In this document: positions 8,058 to 42,793 of the stretch, in pieces
Layout of the letters: the number at the start of each line of letters is the position of its first letter
Position numbering within the stretch: position 1 is the first letter of the stretch
Source of the DNA: Micromonospora rifamycinica
GTDB lineage: Bacteria > Actinomycetota > Actinomycetes > Mycobacteriales > Micromonosporaceae
Direction of reading: 5' to 3'
NCBI RefSeq assembly: GCF_900090265.1
Contig: NZ_LT607752.1
Span: forward strand, 3,720,001 to 3,784,000
Length of the DNA: 64,000 nt
Translations under genes and position numbers: made by a program
Notes under the pieces: model-generated
What the model was told of the DNA's origin: nothing
Database searches by the model: none
The model's input: only the letters and a program-made list of their open reading frames with translations

Positions 8058-11000
8058 TCACCAGCCGGCCGCGAGGTCCTCGCGGGCCGCGGCGACCAGG
8101 TCGTCGAGGGACAACTCGGACAGCACGGCGTCGTCAGGGCCGACCGCCGGACGCGCCGGAGACGGCGGCTCCGGCGTCCGGGCACCGAACAGTTCCGTGG
8201 TCAGGTAGGCGCTGAGGGCCACCACCGTCGGGTGGTCGAGCGCCACCGTCGCCGGTAGTTCCCGGCCCAGGCCGTACGCCAACCGGGTCCGCAGGTCGAT
8301 CGCCATGATCGAGTCGAGGCCCAGGTCGGCGAAGCCTGAGTGCTCGTCCACCGGCACCGGACTGCCCAGCGTCTCCGCCACCATCGTCGCCACCGCGTCG
8401 CGCAGCACCCCCGGCGCGTCCGCCTCCGCCAGGTCGGCCACCCGCTCCCCGAGCCACCCCGACGGCGGCGTCGCGGCGTCGCGGGGGGCGGCCGACGCCG
8501 GTGCCGCCGAGGCCGCCACCAGGGCCGCCCGGGGATGGCCGGCGACCAGCGCGGCGTAGCGGGGAAGGTCGACCGCGACCGCGACCAACCGGTGCAGGTC
8601 GCTGTCCAGCGCCGCCGCCAGGACCGGCGCGGCGTCCTCGTCGCCCAACGGGCGGACGTGGTACCGCTCGGAAGCCCGCCGTACCACGTCGGTGCCGGCC
8701 AGGCCCTGCTCGCCGTCCGGCACCCACGGCCCCCAGGCGATGCTCACCGCCCGGACGCCCTCGGCCCGCAGCGCCTCGGCCAGACCGGTCAGGTAGCCGT
8801 TGGCGGCGGCGTAGCCGGTCTGCCCGGCCGAGCCGAGCACCGAGGAGACCGAGGAGTACAGCACGAAGGCGCCCAGCTCCCGACCCCGCAGCGCCGCGGC
8901 GAGCGCCGCCGCGCCGTCCACCTTGCCGGCGAAGACCCCGTCGTACGCCGACGGCGCCGCCGTGCCGAACGCGCCGTCGGCGGTCGACCCCGCCAGGTGC
9001 AGGACGGCGTCGAGCGGACCGAGCCGGTCGGCGGCGGCCACCGCCTCGGCGCACACCCGGGGATCGGCGACGTCACCCCGTACCACCTCGATCCGGACCC
9101 CCTGCCCGGTGAGCGAGTCCAGGACCCGGCGCGCACCCGCACCCGGCGCGGACCGGCCCACCAGGGTGAGCGCCCTGGTCCCCCGCTCGACCAGCAGCCG
9201 GGCGGTGCTCAGGCCGAGCGCCCCCAGACCACCGGTGATCAGCGCCCCGGACGGCCAGCCACGACCGGCGGACCGCGGTCGCGCCGGCACCAGCCGGGCG
9301 CCGGTGACCGCTCCGGCGGACACCCGCAACCGGGGCTCGGCGCACCCGTCGTCGACCGCGCCGGTCAGCGTCGCCGCCAACCGGTCCACCGCCGTCCGGT
9401 CGGTCTCGACGCGCAGCAGCCGACGGTCCGGCTCCTCAGCCTCCAGTGCGGCGAGCAGACCCCACAGCGTCTCCCGCAGCGGCGCCCCGCCCGGGCCGGT
9501 CGGGGCGAGCACCGCGTACGGCACCGCCGGGCGGCCGGCACGCAGTGCCGCAGCCAACTCCCGGACCGCCGCCAGCGGCTCCACCCGGTCGGACTCGACC
9601 CACCGGGCGTCCACCACCAGGTCGGCCGGGCCGTCCGGGGTCACGGTGTGCCCGGCGCGGCGCAGGGCGGCGGCCAGCTCGTCGACGAAGGCACCCGTGC
9701 CGGTCAGCCCGACCACGTGCCGCCGCCCGACCGGGCGCTCCGCGACCTCCACCGGGGTCCAGTCCACCGCGTACAGGTGGGACCGCTCCTCACGCAGGCT
9801 CTGCCGCAGCAGCTCGCGCGGCGCGTGCCGGACCCGGAAGTCGTCCACCACCATCAGGCTCTCGCCACCGGCGGTGAACAGGTGCAGGTCGGCGGCGTCC
9901 ACCCGGCTGCGCCCGCCGGCCAGCGGCTCGGCCGAACGCACCCGGACGTGCCCCCACAGCTCGCCGGTCGGCCGGGGTCCGGCCGGGAAGGTGATCCGGG
10001 CCGCCGAGAACGGGATGGCCAGCGACGCGGCCTCGGCGACCCGGTCGTCGACCAGGAACCCGGCGATGCTCTGGAAGCACGAGTCGATGAGACCCGGATA
10101 CAGCTCGTAGCACGCCGGGTCGTCGGGCAGCGCCGGTGGCGCGTAGCGGAGCAGGGCCTCCCCACCCCGGATCCACACGTCGGCGATCCACCGGAAGGAC
10201 GGGCCGAGGGTGTAGCCGAGGGCGGCGAAGTAGGCGTAGAACGCCGCCCCGGAGAGGTGCCGGTCGGCACCGCTGACGAACTCCCCCCGGTCCGTCTCCG
10301 TCGGGGCCGCCCGGCCCGCCCCGTCGGCCGTCAACCGACCGGAGAGGTGCTCCTGCCACTGCCGCCGCTCGTCGTCGAGCAGGCTGTGCACGGCGAGGTG
10401 ACCGGTCGCGGTGTCGGCGACCAGCTGCACCCGGTACTCCTCACCCTCGGCGACCACCAACGCCCTCGGGCAGACCATGTCGGTCAGCGTCAGCGCCGCG
10501 CCGTCCCCGGCGAGCGCGGACAGCGCGGTCGCCAGATGCGACGCGGCCGGGGTGACCACCGTGTCGTACAGCCGGTGGTCGGTGAGGTAGGCCGGGAACG
10601 CGGTGGTACGCGGGAACTCGAAGACCCGGGCGCTGCGCAGCGCGGGCGACTGGACCTCGGTACCCCAGTGCGCTCCGGTGCCGGCCGGCGCGGGCGACGG
10701 CCGGGCCGGGGCCGACTTCACCCAGAACCGGGTGTCGGCGAACGGGTAGACCGGTGCCGCCCCGGTCGCCCGGCCCTGCACCGCGGCCCACTCGATCGGC
10801 TGCCCCAGCTCGTACAGCCGGGCCACCGCGTCGAGCAGGACGGCCCGGTCGGACGCCCCGCGCCGCATCGACGGCAACGCGCCTCCGGCCGGCAGCAGAC
10901 CGCCGGCGGTCACCAGGCCGGTGAGCGTACGCCCCGGTCCGATCTCGACGAACACGTCGGCCCCGAGGTCACGCAGCGCCTCCACCCCGGCGCCGAAGCG

Positions 11001-41764: not shown

Positions 41765-42793
41765 GTGCGTTGGGACAACATCTACCTGGCCGGACTCGGG
41801 GTGCACCTGCCGGAGGACGTGTACACCGCCGAGCAGGCCGTCGCCGACGGCGTCTACGACGCGACCGCCGCGGTGACCAACGGCATCCGCGCTGTCCGGG
41901 TGGCCGGACCCGACGAGTCCGGTCCGGTGATGGCGGCCTCGGCCGGCCGGCAGGCCCTGGCACGGTCGGAGCACCGGCCCGAGGACGTCGACGCCGTGCT
42001 GCACGCCTACGTGGGGCACCAGGGCCGGGAGTTCTGGAGCCCGGCACACTACGTGCAGCAGGAGACCGTGGGCGCCAACGGCGCGTCGGTCACCATGGAG
42101 ATCCGCCAGGGCAGCAACGGCCTCCTCGGCGGCATCGAACTCGCCGCCGCGCACCTGACCGCCCGCCCGTCGGCCACCGCCGCGTTGATCACCTCGGGTG
42201 ACGCCTTCCACCTGCCGTTCATCGACCGGTGGACCAGCGACGACCAGACCGTCTTCGGCGACGGGGCCGCTGCCGCCGTGCTCTCCAAGCGCGGCGGGTT
42301 CGCCCGGGTGGTCAGCACGGTCAGCGCCACCGAGCCGAGCCTGGAGCCGCTCTACCGCGGTCCCGAGCCGTGGTCGCGGACGCCGTTCGACGACGGGAAG
42401 CCGGTCAACCTGACCGCCCGCAAGGACGACTGGCTGATGAAGAACGAGGACGCCTACGACGACGCCGTGGGGCTGGTCGGCCAGAAGGTCGCCGGGGTAC
42501 TCGAACAGCTCCTCGACGAGGCCGGGATGACCCTCAAGGACGCGCAGTGGTTCGTCCACGCGACGCTCATCCGCCCGATCGCCGAGTGGAGCTTCTACAA
42601 GACGCTCGACCTCGATCCGGCCACCACCACGTACGAGTGGGGCCTGGACTACGCCCACATGGGAAACTGCGACCAGTTCGCCGGGATCAACCACCTCTAC
42701 GAGACCGGTCGCCTGAAGTCCGGCGACCGGCTGGTCACCATCGGCGCGGGCATCGGCTTCATGTGGACCGCCGCGGTACTCGAGATCGTCTGA
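41765..42793 (+). CDS. KASIII-like protein with Ser in place of the catalytic Cys
   Basis: A 342-residue thiolase-fold protein. The opening IYLAGLGVHLPED is typical of FabH-like enzymes. The active-site segment reads EIRQGSNGLLGGIELA, where FabH proteins have Cys in the Ser position. A His occurs in WFVHATLIRP and an Asn in HMGNCDQFAG. Ser-type KASIII homologues such as DpsC are known from other pathways and handle acyl transfer or unusual starter units. The GTG at 41765 follows AAGGAGG by 4 bases. It is the last gene before a strong terminator, on the right flank of the cluster; whether it belongs to the pathway is uncertain. Confidence 0.83.
   Translation: MRWDNIYLAGLGVHLPEDVYTAEQAVADGVYDATAAVTNGIRAVRVAGPDESGPVMAASAGRQALARSEHRPEDVDAVLHAYVGHQGREFWSPAHYVQQETVGANGASVTMEIRQGSNGLLGGIELAAAHLTARPSATAALITSGDAFHLPFIDRWTSDDQTVFGDGAAAAVLSKRGGFARVVSTVSATEPSLEPLYRGPEPWSRTPFDDGKPVNLTARKDDWLMKNEDAYDDAVGLVGQKVAGVLEQLLDEAGMTLKDAQWFVHATLIRPIAEWSFYKTLDLDPATTTYEWGLDYAHMGNCDQFAGINHLYETGRLKSGDRLVTIGAGIGFMWTAAVLEIV

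What the first reader, a model, noticed from the sequence alone, without database searches (positions are those of the whole stretch)
8058..42793. Hybrid cluster with diaminopropionate and glyceryl-ACP supply but no condensation domain and no terminal thioesterase
Seen: sbnA/sbnB-like genes, A-PCP with MbtH, an FkbH/ACP/KASIII trio and four KS domains on three PKS proteins, yet no NRPS C domain and no TE domain on any protein. Known: SbnA/SbnB make L-2,3-diaminopropionate; FkbH with ACP makes glyceryl-ACP; KASIII-like enzymes join it to polyketides in tetronates. Inferred: the amino acid is joined to the chain by a KS (with the aminoacyl-PCP as starter), by the GNAT or by a KASIII-like protein, and the chain is released by coupling to the glyceryl unit. 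I cannot match this set to a known product class.
Basis: partly seen in the sequence, partly recalled or inferred. Interest (0 to 1): 0.85.

Follow-up and report, generated by a model that had tools for sequence, protein, structure and literature searches.

The report
Amino-acid-carrying tetronate polyketide gene cluster
A conserved and apparently undescribed bacterial gene cluster seems to build a tetronate (glycerol-capped polyketide) carrying a diaminopropionate-derived amino acid that is attached without the usual peptide-bond enzyme, which makes it a testable new branch of a known antibiotic class.

Summary
SbnA, SbnB, MbtH, A-PCP, FkbH/ACP/KASIII and four KS domains on three PKS proteins are present, with no condensation domain found. 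"No TE" holds for the PKSs only: a discrete PF00975 thioesterase lies at 36453-37223.

Missing C and TE domains are not odd here. The core (KASIII-FkbH-ACP, flavoprotein, PKS2-PKS1-PKS3, TE) is of tetronate type, with relatives in Methylosinus, rhizobia, Nocardiopsis, Frankia, Dactylosporangium, Kitasatospora and Streptacidiphilus. Tetronates are released by coupling to glyceryl-ACP.

What is unusual: five genomes of one family (two genera) share a variant without the tetronate acetyltransferase and eliminase but with a seven-gene block (SbnB-MbtH-A-PCP-SnoaL-GNAT-TauD-SbnA). They also carry a second KASIII-like protein (41765-42793) of the DpsC/ChlB3/CerJ type. In two relatives this protein shares a cluster with another carrier-loading system (adenylation enzyme plus carrier; second FkbH plus carrier). 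It is the best candidate to replace the C domain.

Whether the amino acid is starter unit or late acylation is open; a ketosynthase-divergence test did not favour the starter model. Product unknown. New variant of a known kind.

The parts
4830..5513 (+). TetR regulator; low edge of the block conserved with G144
   Evidence: PF13305/PF00440 (scanned as 4656-5513); 89% in G144; 44-46% and at another position in G303/G306/G309
5676..6791 (+). sensor histidine kinase, probably cluster regulator
   Evidence: PF07730 + PF02518
7082..8002 (+). alpha/beta hydrolase (macrolide-esterase-like, below those cut-offs); not similar to the tetronate eliminase
   Evidence: PF00561, NCBIfam; 75-92% in the 4 other Dap-type clusters; no meaningful BLASTP match to the AbyA5-type enzyme of OB3b
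8058..16928 (-). PKS1, two modules: KS-KR-ACP (no AT) and KS-AT-DH-KR-ACP; C-terminal docking-like stretch (by eye)
   Evidence: AT motif HAFH (malonyl type, recalled)
16925..23095 (-). PKS2, one module KS-AT-DH-ER-KR-ACP; no loading module; predicted first in the line
   Evidence: AT motif YASH (methylmalonyl type, recalled)
23148..24398 (-). FAD-dependent monooxygenase-like flavoprotein, core gene of the family
   Evidence: PF01494; found in the 15 clusters used for the tree
24395..24637 (-). discrete ACP for the glyceryl unit
   Evidence: PF00550
24627..26534 (-). FkbH-like glyceryl-ACP synthase
   Evidence: TIGR01686 295 bits
26524..27591 (-). tetronate-type KASIII (coupling, cyclisation, release)
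   Evidence: PDB 5by7 E 3e-76, shared SGC-GA, EDYKAIERHVP and PQL-G motifs
27633..28664 (-). SbnB, diaminopropionate synthesis
   Evidence: TIGR03944 above cut-off
28730..28927 (-). MbtH-like protein
   Evidence: PF03621 E 1e-16
28924..30780 (-). A-PCP: amino acid adenylation domain and carrier
   Evidence: PF00501, PF00550; TIGR01733 395 bits
30777..31286 (-). SnoaL-like protein, role unknown
   Evidence: PF13474 E 1.6e-4, 22.4 bits against a cut-off of 22
31289..31801 (-). GNAT acetyltransferase, possible N-protection of the amino acid
   Evidence: PF00583
31798..32757 (-). TauD-family Fe(II)/2-oxoglutarate dioxygenase, probably acts on the carrier-bound amino acid
32787..33797 (-). SbnA, diaminopropionate synthesis
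   Evidence: TIGR03945 above cut-off
33967..36456 (+). PKS3, KS-ACP without AT; predicted last module
36453..37223 (+). discrete thioesterase (type II-like)
   Evidence: PF00975 E 4e-35; homologue behind PKS3 in the 10 relatives where that end was read
37439..38137 (+). SARP-type activator
   Evidence: PF03704/PF00486 (scanned as 37349-38137)
38339..38962 (+). response regulator, LuxR type
   Evidence: PF00072/PF00196 (scanned as 38231-38962)
39123..40616 (-). MFS exporter
   Evidence: PF07690; 79-93% in the 4 other Dap-type clusters
40848..41207 (+). DoxX-like membrane protein
   Evidence: PF13564, below cut-off; 68-86% in the 4 others
41765..42793 (+). second KASIII-like protein (KASIIIb), DpsC/ChlB3/CerJ type, serine at the nucleophile position; proposed aminoacyl transferase; high edge of the block conserved with G144
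   Evidence: PDB 4xs7 E 9e-61, 7eqi (ChlB3) E 7e-58, 3s3l (CerJ) E 6e-55; alignment

Best explanation
This is a type I PKS tetronate cluster that has acquired an amino-acid cassette. Proposed order: SbnA and SbnB make L-2,3-diaminopropionate (inferred from family). A-PCP with MbtH loads it, or a close derivative, on the PCP; TauD oxidises it there, and the GNAT may acetylate an amine (inferred). The second KASIII-like protein (KASIIIb, 41765-42793) takes the aminoacyl group off the PCP and passes it on, doing the job of the missing C domain (inferred). The preferred acceptor is PKS2, so the amino acid is the starter unit. PKS2 (methylmalonate, full reduction), PKS1 (malonate with KR; malonate with DH-KR) and PKS3 (no reduction) extend it; the two AT-less modules are charged by an AT in trans (inferred). 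FkbH makes glyceryl-ACP, and the tetronate KASIII joins it to the beta-ketoacyl chain, closes the ring and releases a 3-acyl-5-hydroxymethyl tetronate, which is why no terminal TE is needed. The free-standing TE is an editing enzyme. Acetylation and elimination of the hydroxymethyl group do not occur here. Step confidence: tetronate release about 0.88; diaminopropionate made and loaded about 0.75; KASIIIb as transferase about 0.6; amino acid as starter by any route about 0.5. The confidence given is for the joint statement with KASIIIb feeding PKS2.
For: (1) Family membership of the parts. (2) KASIII 67-74% identical in 10 named genomes, with the same neighbours, and in Methylosinus trichosporium OB3b, whose cluster also has an E2-like acyltransferase and an AbyA5 homologue (PDB 5no5/4ywf, E 2e-66). 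Agg4/Agg5-type acetylation and elimination belong to the tetronate 'glycerate-utilisation operon' in PMC7489565 (passages). (3) Gene order PKS2-PKS1-PKS3-TE is kept in the 10 relatives read to that end. By eye, PKS1 and PKS3 begin with helix-like docking stretches, PKS2 does not, and PKS1 ends in one, so PKS2 is first and PKS3 last. (4) The Dap-type set recurs in G144, G303, G306 and G309, one clade with 100% support. (5) The best solved relatives of KASIIIb are a daunorubicin-pathway protein (4xs7; that this is the starter enzyme DpsC is recalled), ChlB3 and CerJ. In Streptacidiphilus an adenylation enzyme and a discrete carrier lie one small gene away from KASIIIb. In Dactylosporangium the homologous carrier (58%) follows a second FkbH, three genes and 5.5 kb from KASIIIb. 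(6) PKS2 has no loading module in the window, and in G303, G306 and G309 it starts too close to the flavoprotein gene to leave room for one.
Against: If the starter had changed only in the Dap clade, the KS of PKS2 might be expected to diverge more than the other KS domains. It does not: window against OB3b is 72% for it and 71, 71 and 67% for the others. An earlier figure that suggested otherwise came from a Frankia paralogue. At the nucleophile position KASIIIb has Ser in the window, G144, Dactylosporangium and Streptacidiphilus, Cys in three Dap-type clusters and Ala in Frankia, so one covalent mechanism for all is doubtful. Frankia has KASIIIb with no loading system seen in the stretches read, and Kitasatospora has no KASIIIb in the stretches read. 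In the window KASIIIb lies about 11 kb from A-PCP. The A-domain specificity was not tested. No product is known.
Confidence: 0.4

Rival explanations
1. Tetronate with late aminoacylation. The PKS starts from a simple acyl-CoA, as may be the case in the E2/eliminase relatives. KASIIIb esterifies the finished tetronate (its free 5-hydroxymethyl group, or a hydroxyl set by the KR or the flavoprotein) with the diaminopropionate-derived unit from the PCP, as CerJ-type enzymes acylate small-molecule hydroxyls (recalled).
For: No E2 of the tetronate type and no eliminase was found in the 5 Dap-type genomes, while that E2 was found in 6 of 6 other genomes searched, so an acceptor is left free in just these clusters. 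The KS of PKS2 is no more diverged than the other KS domains. OB3b, whose annotated cluster shows no loading system, has the same PKS2. ChlB3 and CerJ are among the nearest solved structures of KASIIIb.
Against: KASIIIb coexists with E2 in Dactylosporangium, Frankia and Streptacidiphilus, so it did not simply replace E2. The best match of KASIIIb is the daunorubicin-pathway protein, a starter-unit enzyme (recalled).
Confidence: 0.33
2. The KS of PKS2 takes the aminoacyl group directly from the PCP, and KASIIIb does something else, for example supplies another acyl group.
For: KS domains that accept aminoacyl-PCP are known from hybrid NRPS-PKS lines (recalled). PKS2 has no loading module.
Against: No docking region is apparent by eye at the end of A-PCP or the start of PKS2. 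KASIIIb is present in 5 of 5 Dap-type clusters and would be left without a role.
Confidence: 0.12
3. Two unrelated pathways side by side: a complete tetronate cluster and a small diaminopropionate-derived amino acid product made by the SbnB-to-SbnA block.
For: The core occurs without the block in the 11 relatives looked at.
Against: The block lies inside the core, between KASIII and PKS3, in 5 of 5 species of two genera at 58-96% identity, and its presence goes with absence of E2.
Confidence: 0.06

Closest known systems
Abyssomicin (aby) and other tetronate clusters (agglomerin, RK-682, tetromadurin, chlorothricin)
   Same: FkbH, discrete ACP and KASIII; in abyssomicin (PMC3625739, passages) also a last PKS module without reduction, no TE domain listed on the PKS, a discrete type II thioesterase (AbyT), and SARP and LuxR regulators
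   Different: Only four modules, two without AT; no AbyA4-type acyltransferase at comparable similarity and no AbyA5-type hydrolase found in the genome; a diaminopropionate, A-PCP, MbtH and TauD block and a DpsC/CerJ-like protein are added
Core family without known product in Methylosinus trichosporium OB3b plasmid pOB3b3 and in Allorhizobium, Nocardiopsis, Dactylosporangium, Frankia, Streptacidiphilus and Kitasatospora
   Same: KASIII-FkbH-ACP-flavoprotein and, where read, PKS2-PKS1-PKS3-TE; AT-less modules checked by motif in OB3b only
   Different: E2 in 11 of 11 loci and the AbyA5-type eliminase beside the core in 7 of 11; no SbnA, SbnB or A-PCP hit of 60 bits or more in any of the 11 stretches
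Beta-amino-acid-primed macrolactam clusters (vicenistatin type; PMC11284099, passages)
   Same: An adenylation enzyme and a carrier supply an amino-acid starter; an acyltransferase hands it to the PKS; amine protection is needed
   Different: Here a fused A-PCP with MbtH and an alpha-amino acid supply, a KASIII-like enzyme instead of VinK, no VinM-like or amidohydrolase gene recognised, release to a tetronate instead of a lactam (inferred)
DpsC, ChlB3, CerJ (KASIII-like acyltransferases)
   Same: Sequence family (E 9e-61 to 6e-55 for these three); Ser aligned with the Ser of 4xs7 (its role as nucleophile is recalled); the downstream His and Asp are aligned too
   Different: Substrate and acceptor unknown; the nucleophile position varies Ser/Cys/Ala among the members aligned
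SbnA/SbnB of staphyloferrin B
   Same: Both equivalog models above cut-off
   Different: The genes stand with an A-PCP in a PKS cluster, not with siderophore synthetases

Membership tests
Tetronate glycerate-utilisation operon | FkbH-like glyceryl transferase with discrete ACP | tested here: met
   TIGR01686 above cut-off, adjacent PF00550 protein
Tetronate glycerate-utilisation operon | FabH-like tetronate synthase | tested here: met
   KASIII with 5by7 as best match, shared motifs, no HQAN histidine; that 5by7 is AbyA1 is recalled, not tested
Tetronate glycerate-utilisation operon | Agg4/AbyA4-type E2 acyltransferase (needed only for the exocyclic double bond; that RK-682 lacks it is recalled) | tested here: not met
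   5 of 5 Dap-type genomes give only weak matches (best E 1e-9; mostly about 75 residues, one of 228 residues at 27% in G306), 6 of 6 controls give E 1.5e-80 or better
Tetronate glycerate-utilisation operon | Agg5/AbyA5-type eliminase (same remark) | tested here: not met
   No match at E<=1e-3 in 5 of 5 Dap-type genomes; found in 2 of 2 genomes known to carry it in the cluster
Tetronate glycerate-utilisation operon | Tetronate ring in the product | not testable with these tools
   no product data
Classical NRPS-PKS hybrid | Condensation domain | tested here: not met
   None at E<=1e-3 in the Pfam scans of the cluster proteins
SbnA/SbnB diaminopropionate pathway | Both enzymes at equivalog level | tested here: met
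   TIGR03945 416/350 bits and TIGR03944 390/327 bits
SbnA/SbnB diaminopropionate pathway | Diaminopropionate is the A-domain substrate | not tested
   Pocket code D-A-Q-S-F-A-L-V-N-K read by eye against recalled GrsA positions; no reference set at hand
DpsC/ChlB3/CerJ acyltransferases | Closer to these than to condensing FabH enzymes | tested here: met
   Of 41 distinct PDB sequences matched, the best seven have 162-209 bits (three daunorubicin-pathway entries, ChlB3, CerJ and two named 3-oxoacyl synthase); the rest have at most 43 bits
DpsC/ChlB3/CerJ acyltransferases | Conserved Cys/Ser nucleophile | tested here: inconclusive
   Ser or Cys in 7 of 8 KASIIIb proteins aligned, Ala in Frankia (a ninth row was the third KASIII-like protein of Dactylosporangium)
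Beta-amino-acid-primed macrolactams | VinK-type acyltransferase and lactamising TE domain | tested here: not met
   No discrete AT gene and no PKS-borne TE in the window cluster

The most novel reading that the evidence does not exclude
A tetronate assembly line of fixed design (four modules, two without AT), spread over Alphaproteobacteria and Actinobacteria, takes its variable unit from exchangeable cassettes: none, second FkbH plus carrier, adenylation enzyme plus carrier, or diaminopropionate A-PCP. Each unit is handed over by one KASIII-like acyltransferase in place of a condensation domain. The window holds the amino-acid form, which would give the first diaminopropionate-bearing tetronates.
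Probability: 0.35. Interest if true: 0.72.

Novelty: new variant of a known kind. Interest (0 to 1): 0.56.

Why it matters
Tetronates are a recognised antibiotic class (abyssomicin, tetrodecamycin). A branch in which an amino acid is joined without a condensation domain, by a KASIII-like enzyme, would add a joining reaction to the hybrid PKS-NRPS toolbox, and the exchanged loading genes offer natural parts for changing the unit. Five homologous clusters in two genera make knock-out, isotope feeding and in vitro transfer directly feasible.

Tried and rejected
Starter-switch test on ketosynthases: one search gave 59% within one group for the KS of PKS2. The best Frankia hit was a paralogue from another PKS, so I discarded the figure; the repeat without Frankia shows no special divergence. 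The list of fixed KS2 columns was made with the same faulty row and is not used.

The alpha/beta hydrolase at 7082-8002 as a stand-in eliminase: not supported, no meaningful match to the AbyA5-type protein; a distant relation of fold was not tested.

GNAT as the joining enzyme: not supported; its best NCBIfam match is rimI, below cut-off.

The ABC transporter at 44743-49969 as part of the cluster: rejected; it was not found in the 11 kb of G144 behind the cluster edge, although abyssomicin has a similar transporter set.

Known product: searches in the open paper library (those aimed at diaminopropionate with tetronates are 25, 73 and 93) listed no diaminopropionate-bearing tetronate that I could recognise. 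I saw the listings and passages of four papers only; subscription journals are mostly absent from the library, and antiSMASH/MIBiG could not be run. RNA families: none in the window at gathering score. SnoaL had no plasmid homologue at E<=1e-5. The A-domain code could not be tied to a substrate.

Rows left out: Nocardiopsis lucentensis L040 (short contig) and the tree. G119, G110, G107, G048, G079 and G102 (KASIII 38-47%) were fetched but looked at only by tblastn of window proteins. Only part of the flanking genes of the relatives was scanned with Pfam, so a loading system there could have been missed.

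Full report
What is in the window. Gene calling by codon composition and HMM scans give one block from about 4.8 to 42.8 kb. On the minus strand, in order of transcription: SbnA, TauD, GNAT, SnoaL-like, A-PCP, MbtH, SbnB, KASIII, FkbH, ACP, flavoprotein, PKS2, PKS1. On the plus strand: PKS3, a discrete thioesterase, SARP and LuxR regulators, a DoxX-like protein and a second KASIII-like protein (KASIIIb); an MFS gene on the minus strand lies among them. 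No Condensation domain was listed in the Pfam scans of the cluster proteins.

PKS anatomy. PKS2 is KS-AT-DH-ER-KR-ACP. PKS1 is KS-KR-ACP followed by KS-AT-DH-KR-ACP. PKS3 is KS-ACP. The four KS sites hold Cys. The first module of PKS1 and PKS3 have no AT. The AT motif occurs once in PKS1 and not in PKS3 in the window, G144, G303, G306, G309 and OB3b (the G144 PKS frames look interrupted and were read in part), so the absence of AT is not a local loss. By eye, PKS1 and PKS3 start with helix-like stretches and PKS1 ends with one; PKS2 starts directly at its KS. With the order PKS2-PKS1-PKS3-TE in relatives, I infer that PKS2 works first and PKS3 last.

The core is a tetronate line. The plasmid search with FkbH found Methylosinus trichosporium OB3b at 58.7%. 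Its plasmid carries KASIII, FkbH, ACP, E2-like acyltransferase, flavoprotein, alpha/beta hydrolase, three PKS genes of matching size, TE and an SRPBCC gene. The hydrolase is an AbyA5 homologue (PDB 5no5/4ywf, E 2e-66). A scan of GTDB genomes with the KASIII alignment gave 10 loci at 67-74% identity: Allorhizobium terrae, A. undicola, another Rhizobiales, three Nocardiopsis, Dactylosporangium aurantiacum, Streptacidiphilus fuscans, Kitasatospora sp. GAS204B and a Frankia. Of these 10 plus OB3b, 11 of 11 have E2, 7 of 11 have the eliminase beside it (one cut by a contig end), and 0 of 11 have SbnA, SbnB or A-PCP hits of 60 bits or more in the stretch. PKS3 was found in 10 of 10 records searched, partial in Frankia (the eleventh, N. 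lucentensis, was left out). SbnA at E<=1e-60 was found in 1 of 10, on another contig. Passages of PMC7489565 describe the glycerate-utilisation operon (FkbH, ACP, FabH-like protein, Agg4 acyltransferase, Agg5 dehydratase); passages of PMC3625739 show five homologous genes plus a discrete thioesterase in abyssomicin. Lack of C and TE domains is therefore ordinary for release in this class.

The variant. Of 354 genomes of the family searched with A-PCP, 10 matched at E<=1e-130: the window, G144 (89%), three genomes of a second genus at 74-77%, and five at 43-46% that I did not follow. In G144, G303, G306 and G309 the cluster recurs: the 21 genes from the alpha/beta hydrolase to KASIIIb match in each, with small changes of order at the KASIIIb-MFS-DoxX end. 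G144 shows only weak or partial hits for the genes tested just outside. A tree of KASIII, FkbH and flavoprotein puts the five in one clade with 100% support, inside the actinobacterial relatives; the branch joining them to Frankia has only 56%, and those around it 77-85%. E2 of the tetronate type is missing from 5 of 5 of these genomes: matches there are at most E 1e-9, mostly over about 75 residues, one over 228 residues at 27% in G306, against E 1.5e-80 or better in 6 of 6 controls. The eliminase is missing from 5 of 5. The simplest reading is that one ancestor gained the amino-acid block and that acetylation and elimination were lost. Of the four relatives without an eliminase beside the core, two (Dactylosporangium, Kitasatospora) have a homologue on another contig, Frankia has none and Streptacidiphilus only a weak hit (E 1e-4).

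How the amino acid may be joined. KASIIIb is not a typical FabH: its seven best solved relatives are three daunorubicin-pathway entries (DpsC, name recalled), ChlB3, CerJ and two proteins named 3-oxoacyl synthase (162-209 bits); the next is at 43 bits. It has Ser aligned with the Ser of 4xs7. The same position is Cys in G303, G306 and G309, Ser in G144, Dactylosporangium and Streptacidiphilus, and Ala in Frankia. In Streptacidiphilus, one small gene away from KASIIIb, lie an adenylation enzyme (TIGR01733, 322 bits against 317) and an 82-aa carrier. In Dactylosporangium a 75-aa carrier 58% identical to that one follows a second FkbH, with three genes (5.5 kb) between it and KASIIIb (both carriers are weak PF00550 matches below cut-off). 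I read this as one transferase used with exchangeable loading systems. Against it: Frankia has KASIIIb without a loading system seen, and Kitasatospora has no KASIIIb in the stretches read but a discrete AT gene behind the TE. Starter or late acylation? PKS2 has no loading module and DpsC is a starter enzyme (recalled), which favours starter. But the KS of PKS2 is not specially diverged, and a free hydroxymethyl group is expected just where E2 and eliminase are absent, which favours late acylation. I give about 0.5 to starter (0.4 through KASIIIb, 0.12 by direct transfer to the KS) and 0.33 to late acylation.

The diaminopropionate step. SbnA and SbnB pass equivalog cut-offs. A-domain hits are in five of the six. 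This links the TauD type to amino-acid activation and, less firmly, to diaminopropionate. That TauD acts on the PCP-bound amino acid, and that the GNAT protects an amine, are inferences; the need for such protection is described for macrolactam starters in PMC11284099 (passages). The A-domain pocket was read by eye from recalled positions and is the same in the five clusters (segments printed); it fits no code that I can cite.

Flavoprotein. It is a core gene and only distantly like PDB flavoproteins (best 8uiu, E 3e-33; ChlE3 and 6ui5 are further down the list). FAD proteins in tetronate clusters can be Diels-Alderases without redox chemistry (TedJ, PMC12380092, passages, which names 6ui5 as Tmn9). 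With a four-module chain a decalin is unlikely; hydroxylation or epoxidation is my guess.

Verdict. The architecture is real, conserved and, in the open literature that could be searched, not recognised as described. The core chemistry is known; the amino-acid addition without a C domain is the new part.

Noticed in passing
window about 10545-10577, minus strand (DH of PKS1 module 2, protein position 2118): The DH motif reads HRLYDTVVTP in the window but HRLYGTVVTP in G144, G303, G306 and G309; the window enzyme may have altered dehydratase activity.
   Followed up: partly
L015 1536-26449 (Methylosinus trichosporium OB3b plasmid pOB3b3): A complete tetronate-type PKS cluster on a methanotroph plasmid, with IS transposase and RHS genes on both sides and ABC/RND-type efflux genes beside it; likely moved horizontally.
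   Followed up: partly
L039 15-1438 (Dactylosporangium aurantiacum): A second, shorter FkbH (at the edge of the stretch read, perhaps cut) followed by a discrete carrier upstream of the core tetronate genes, plus a third KASIII-like gene (8841-9899) and an FkbM methyltransferase; possibly a glyceryl-type starter system.
   Followed up: partly
   Followed up: partly
L016-L018 (G144): The PKS1, PKS2 and PKS3 open frames look interrupted in G144; assembly errors or decay not decided.
   Followed up: no
window 44743-49969: Oligopeptide-type ABC transporter set (two ATPases, two permeases, SBP_bac_5) just outside the conserved block; abyssomicin has a similar set in its cluster, here it is not kept with the cluster in G144.
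   Followed up: partly
window 3229-4602 and 51179-52498: Two cellulose-binding proteins flank the cluster: a GH6 enzyme with CBM2 and an esterase-like protein with CBM2.
   Followed up: no
G000:C1:2009685-2010608: A second FkbH-like gene (33% to the cluster one) elsewhere in the same genome.
   Followed up: no
window 59685-62234: Large protein with FIMAH domain and a weak LVIVD repeat match.
   Followed up: no
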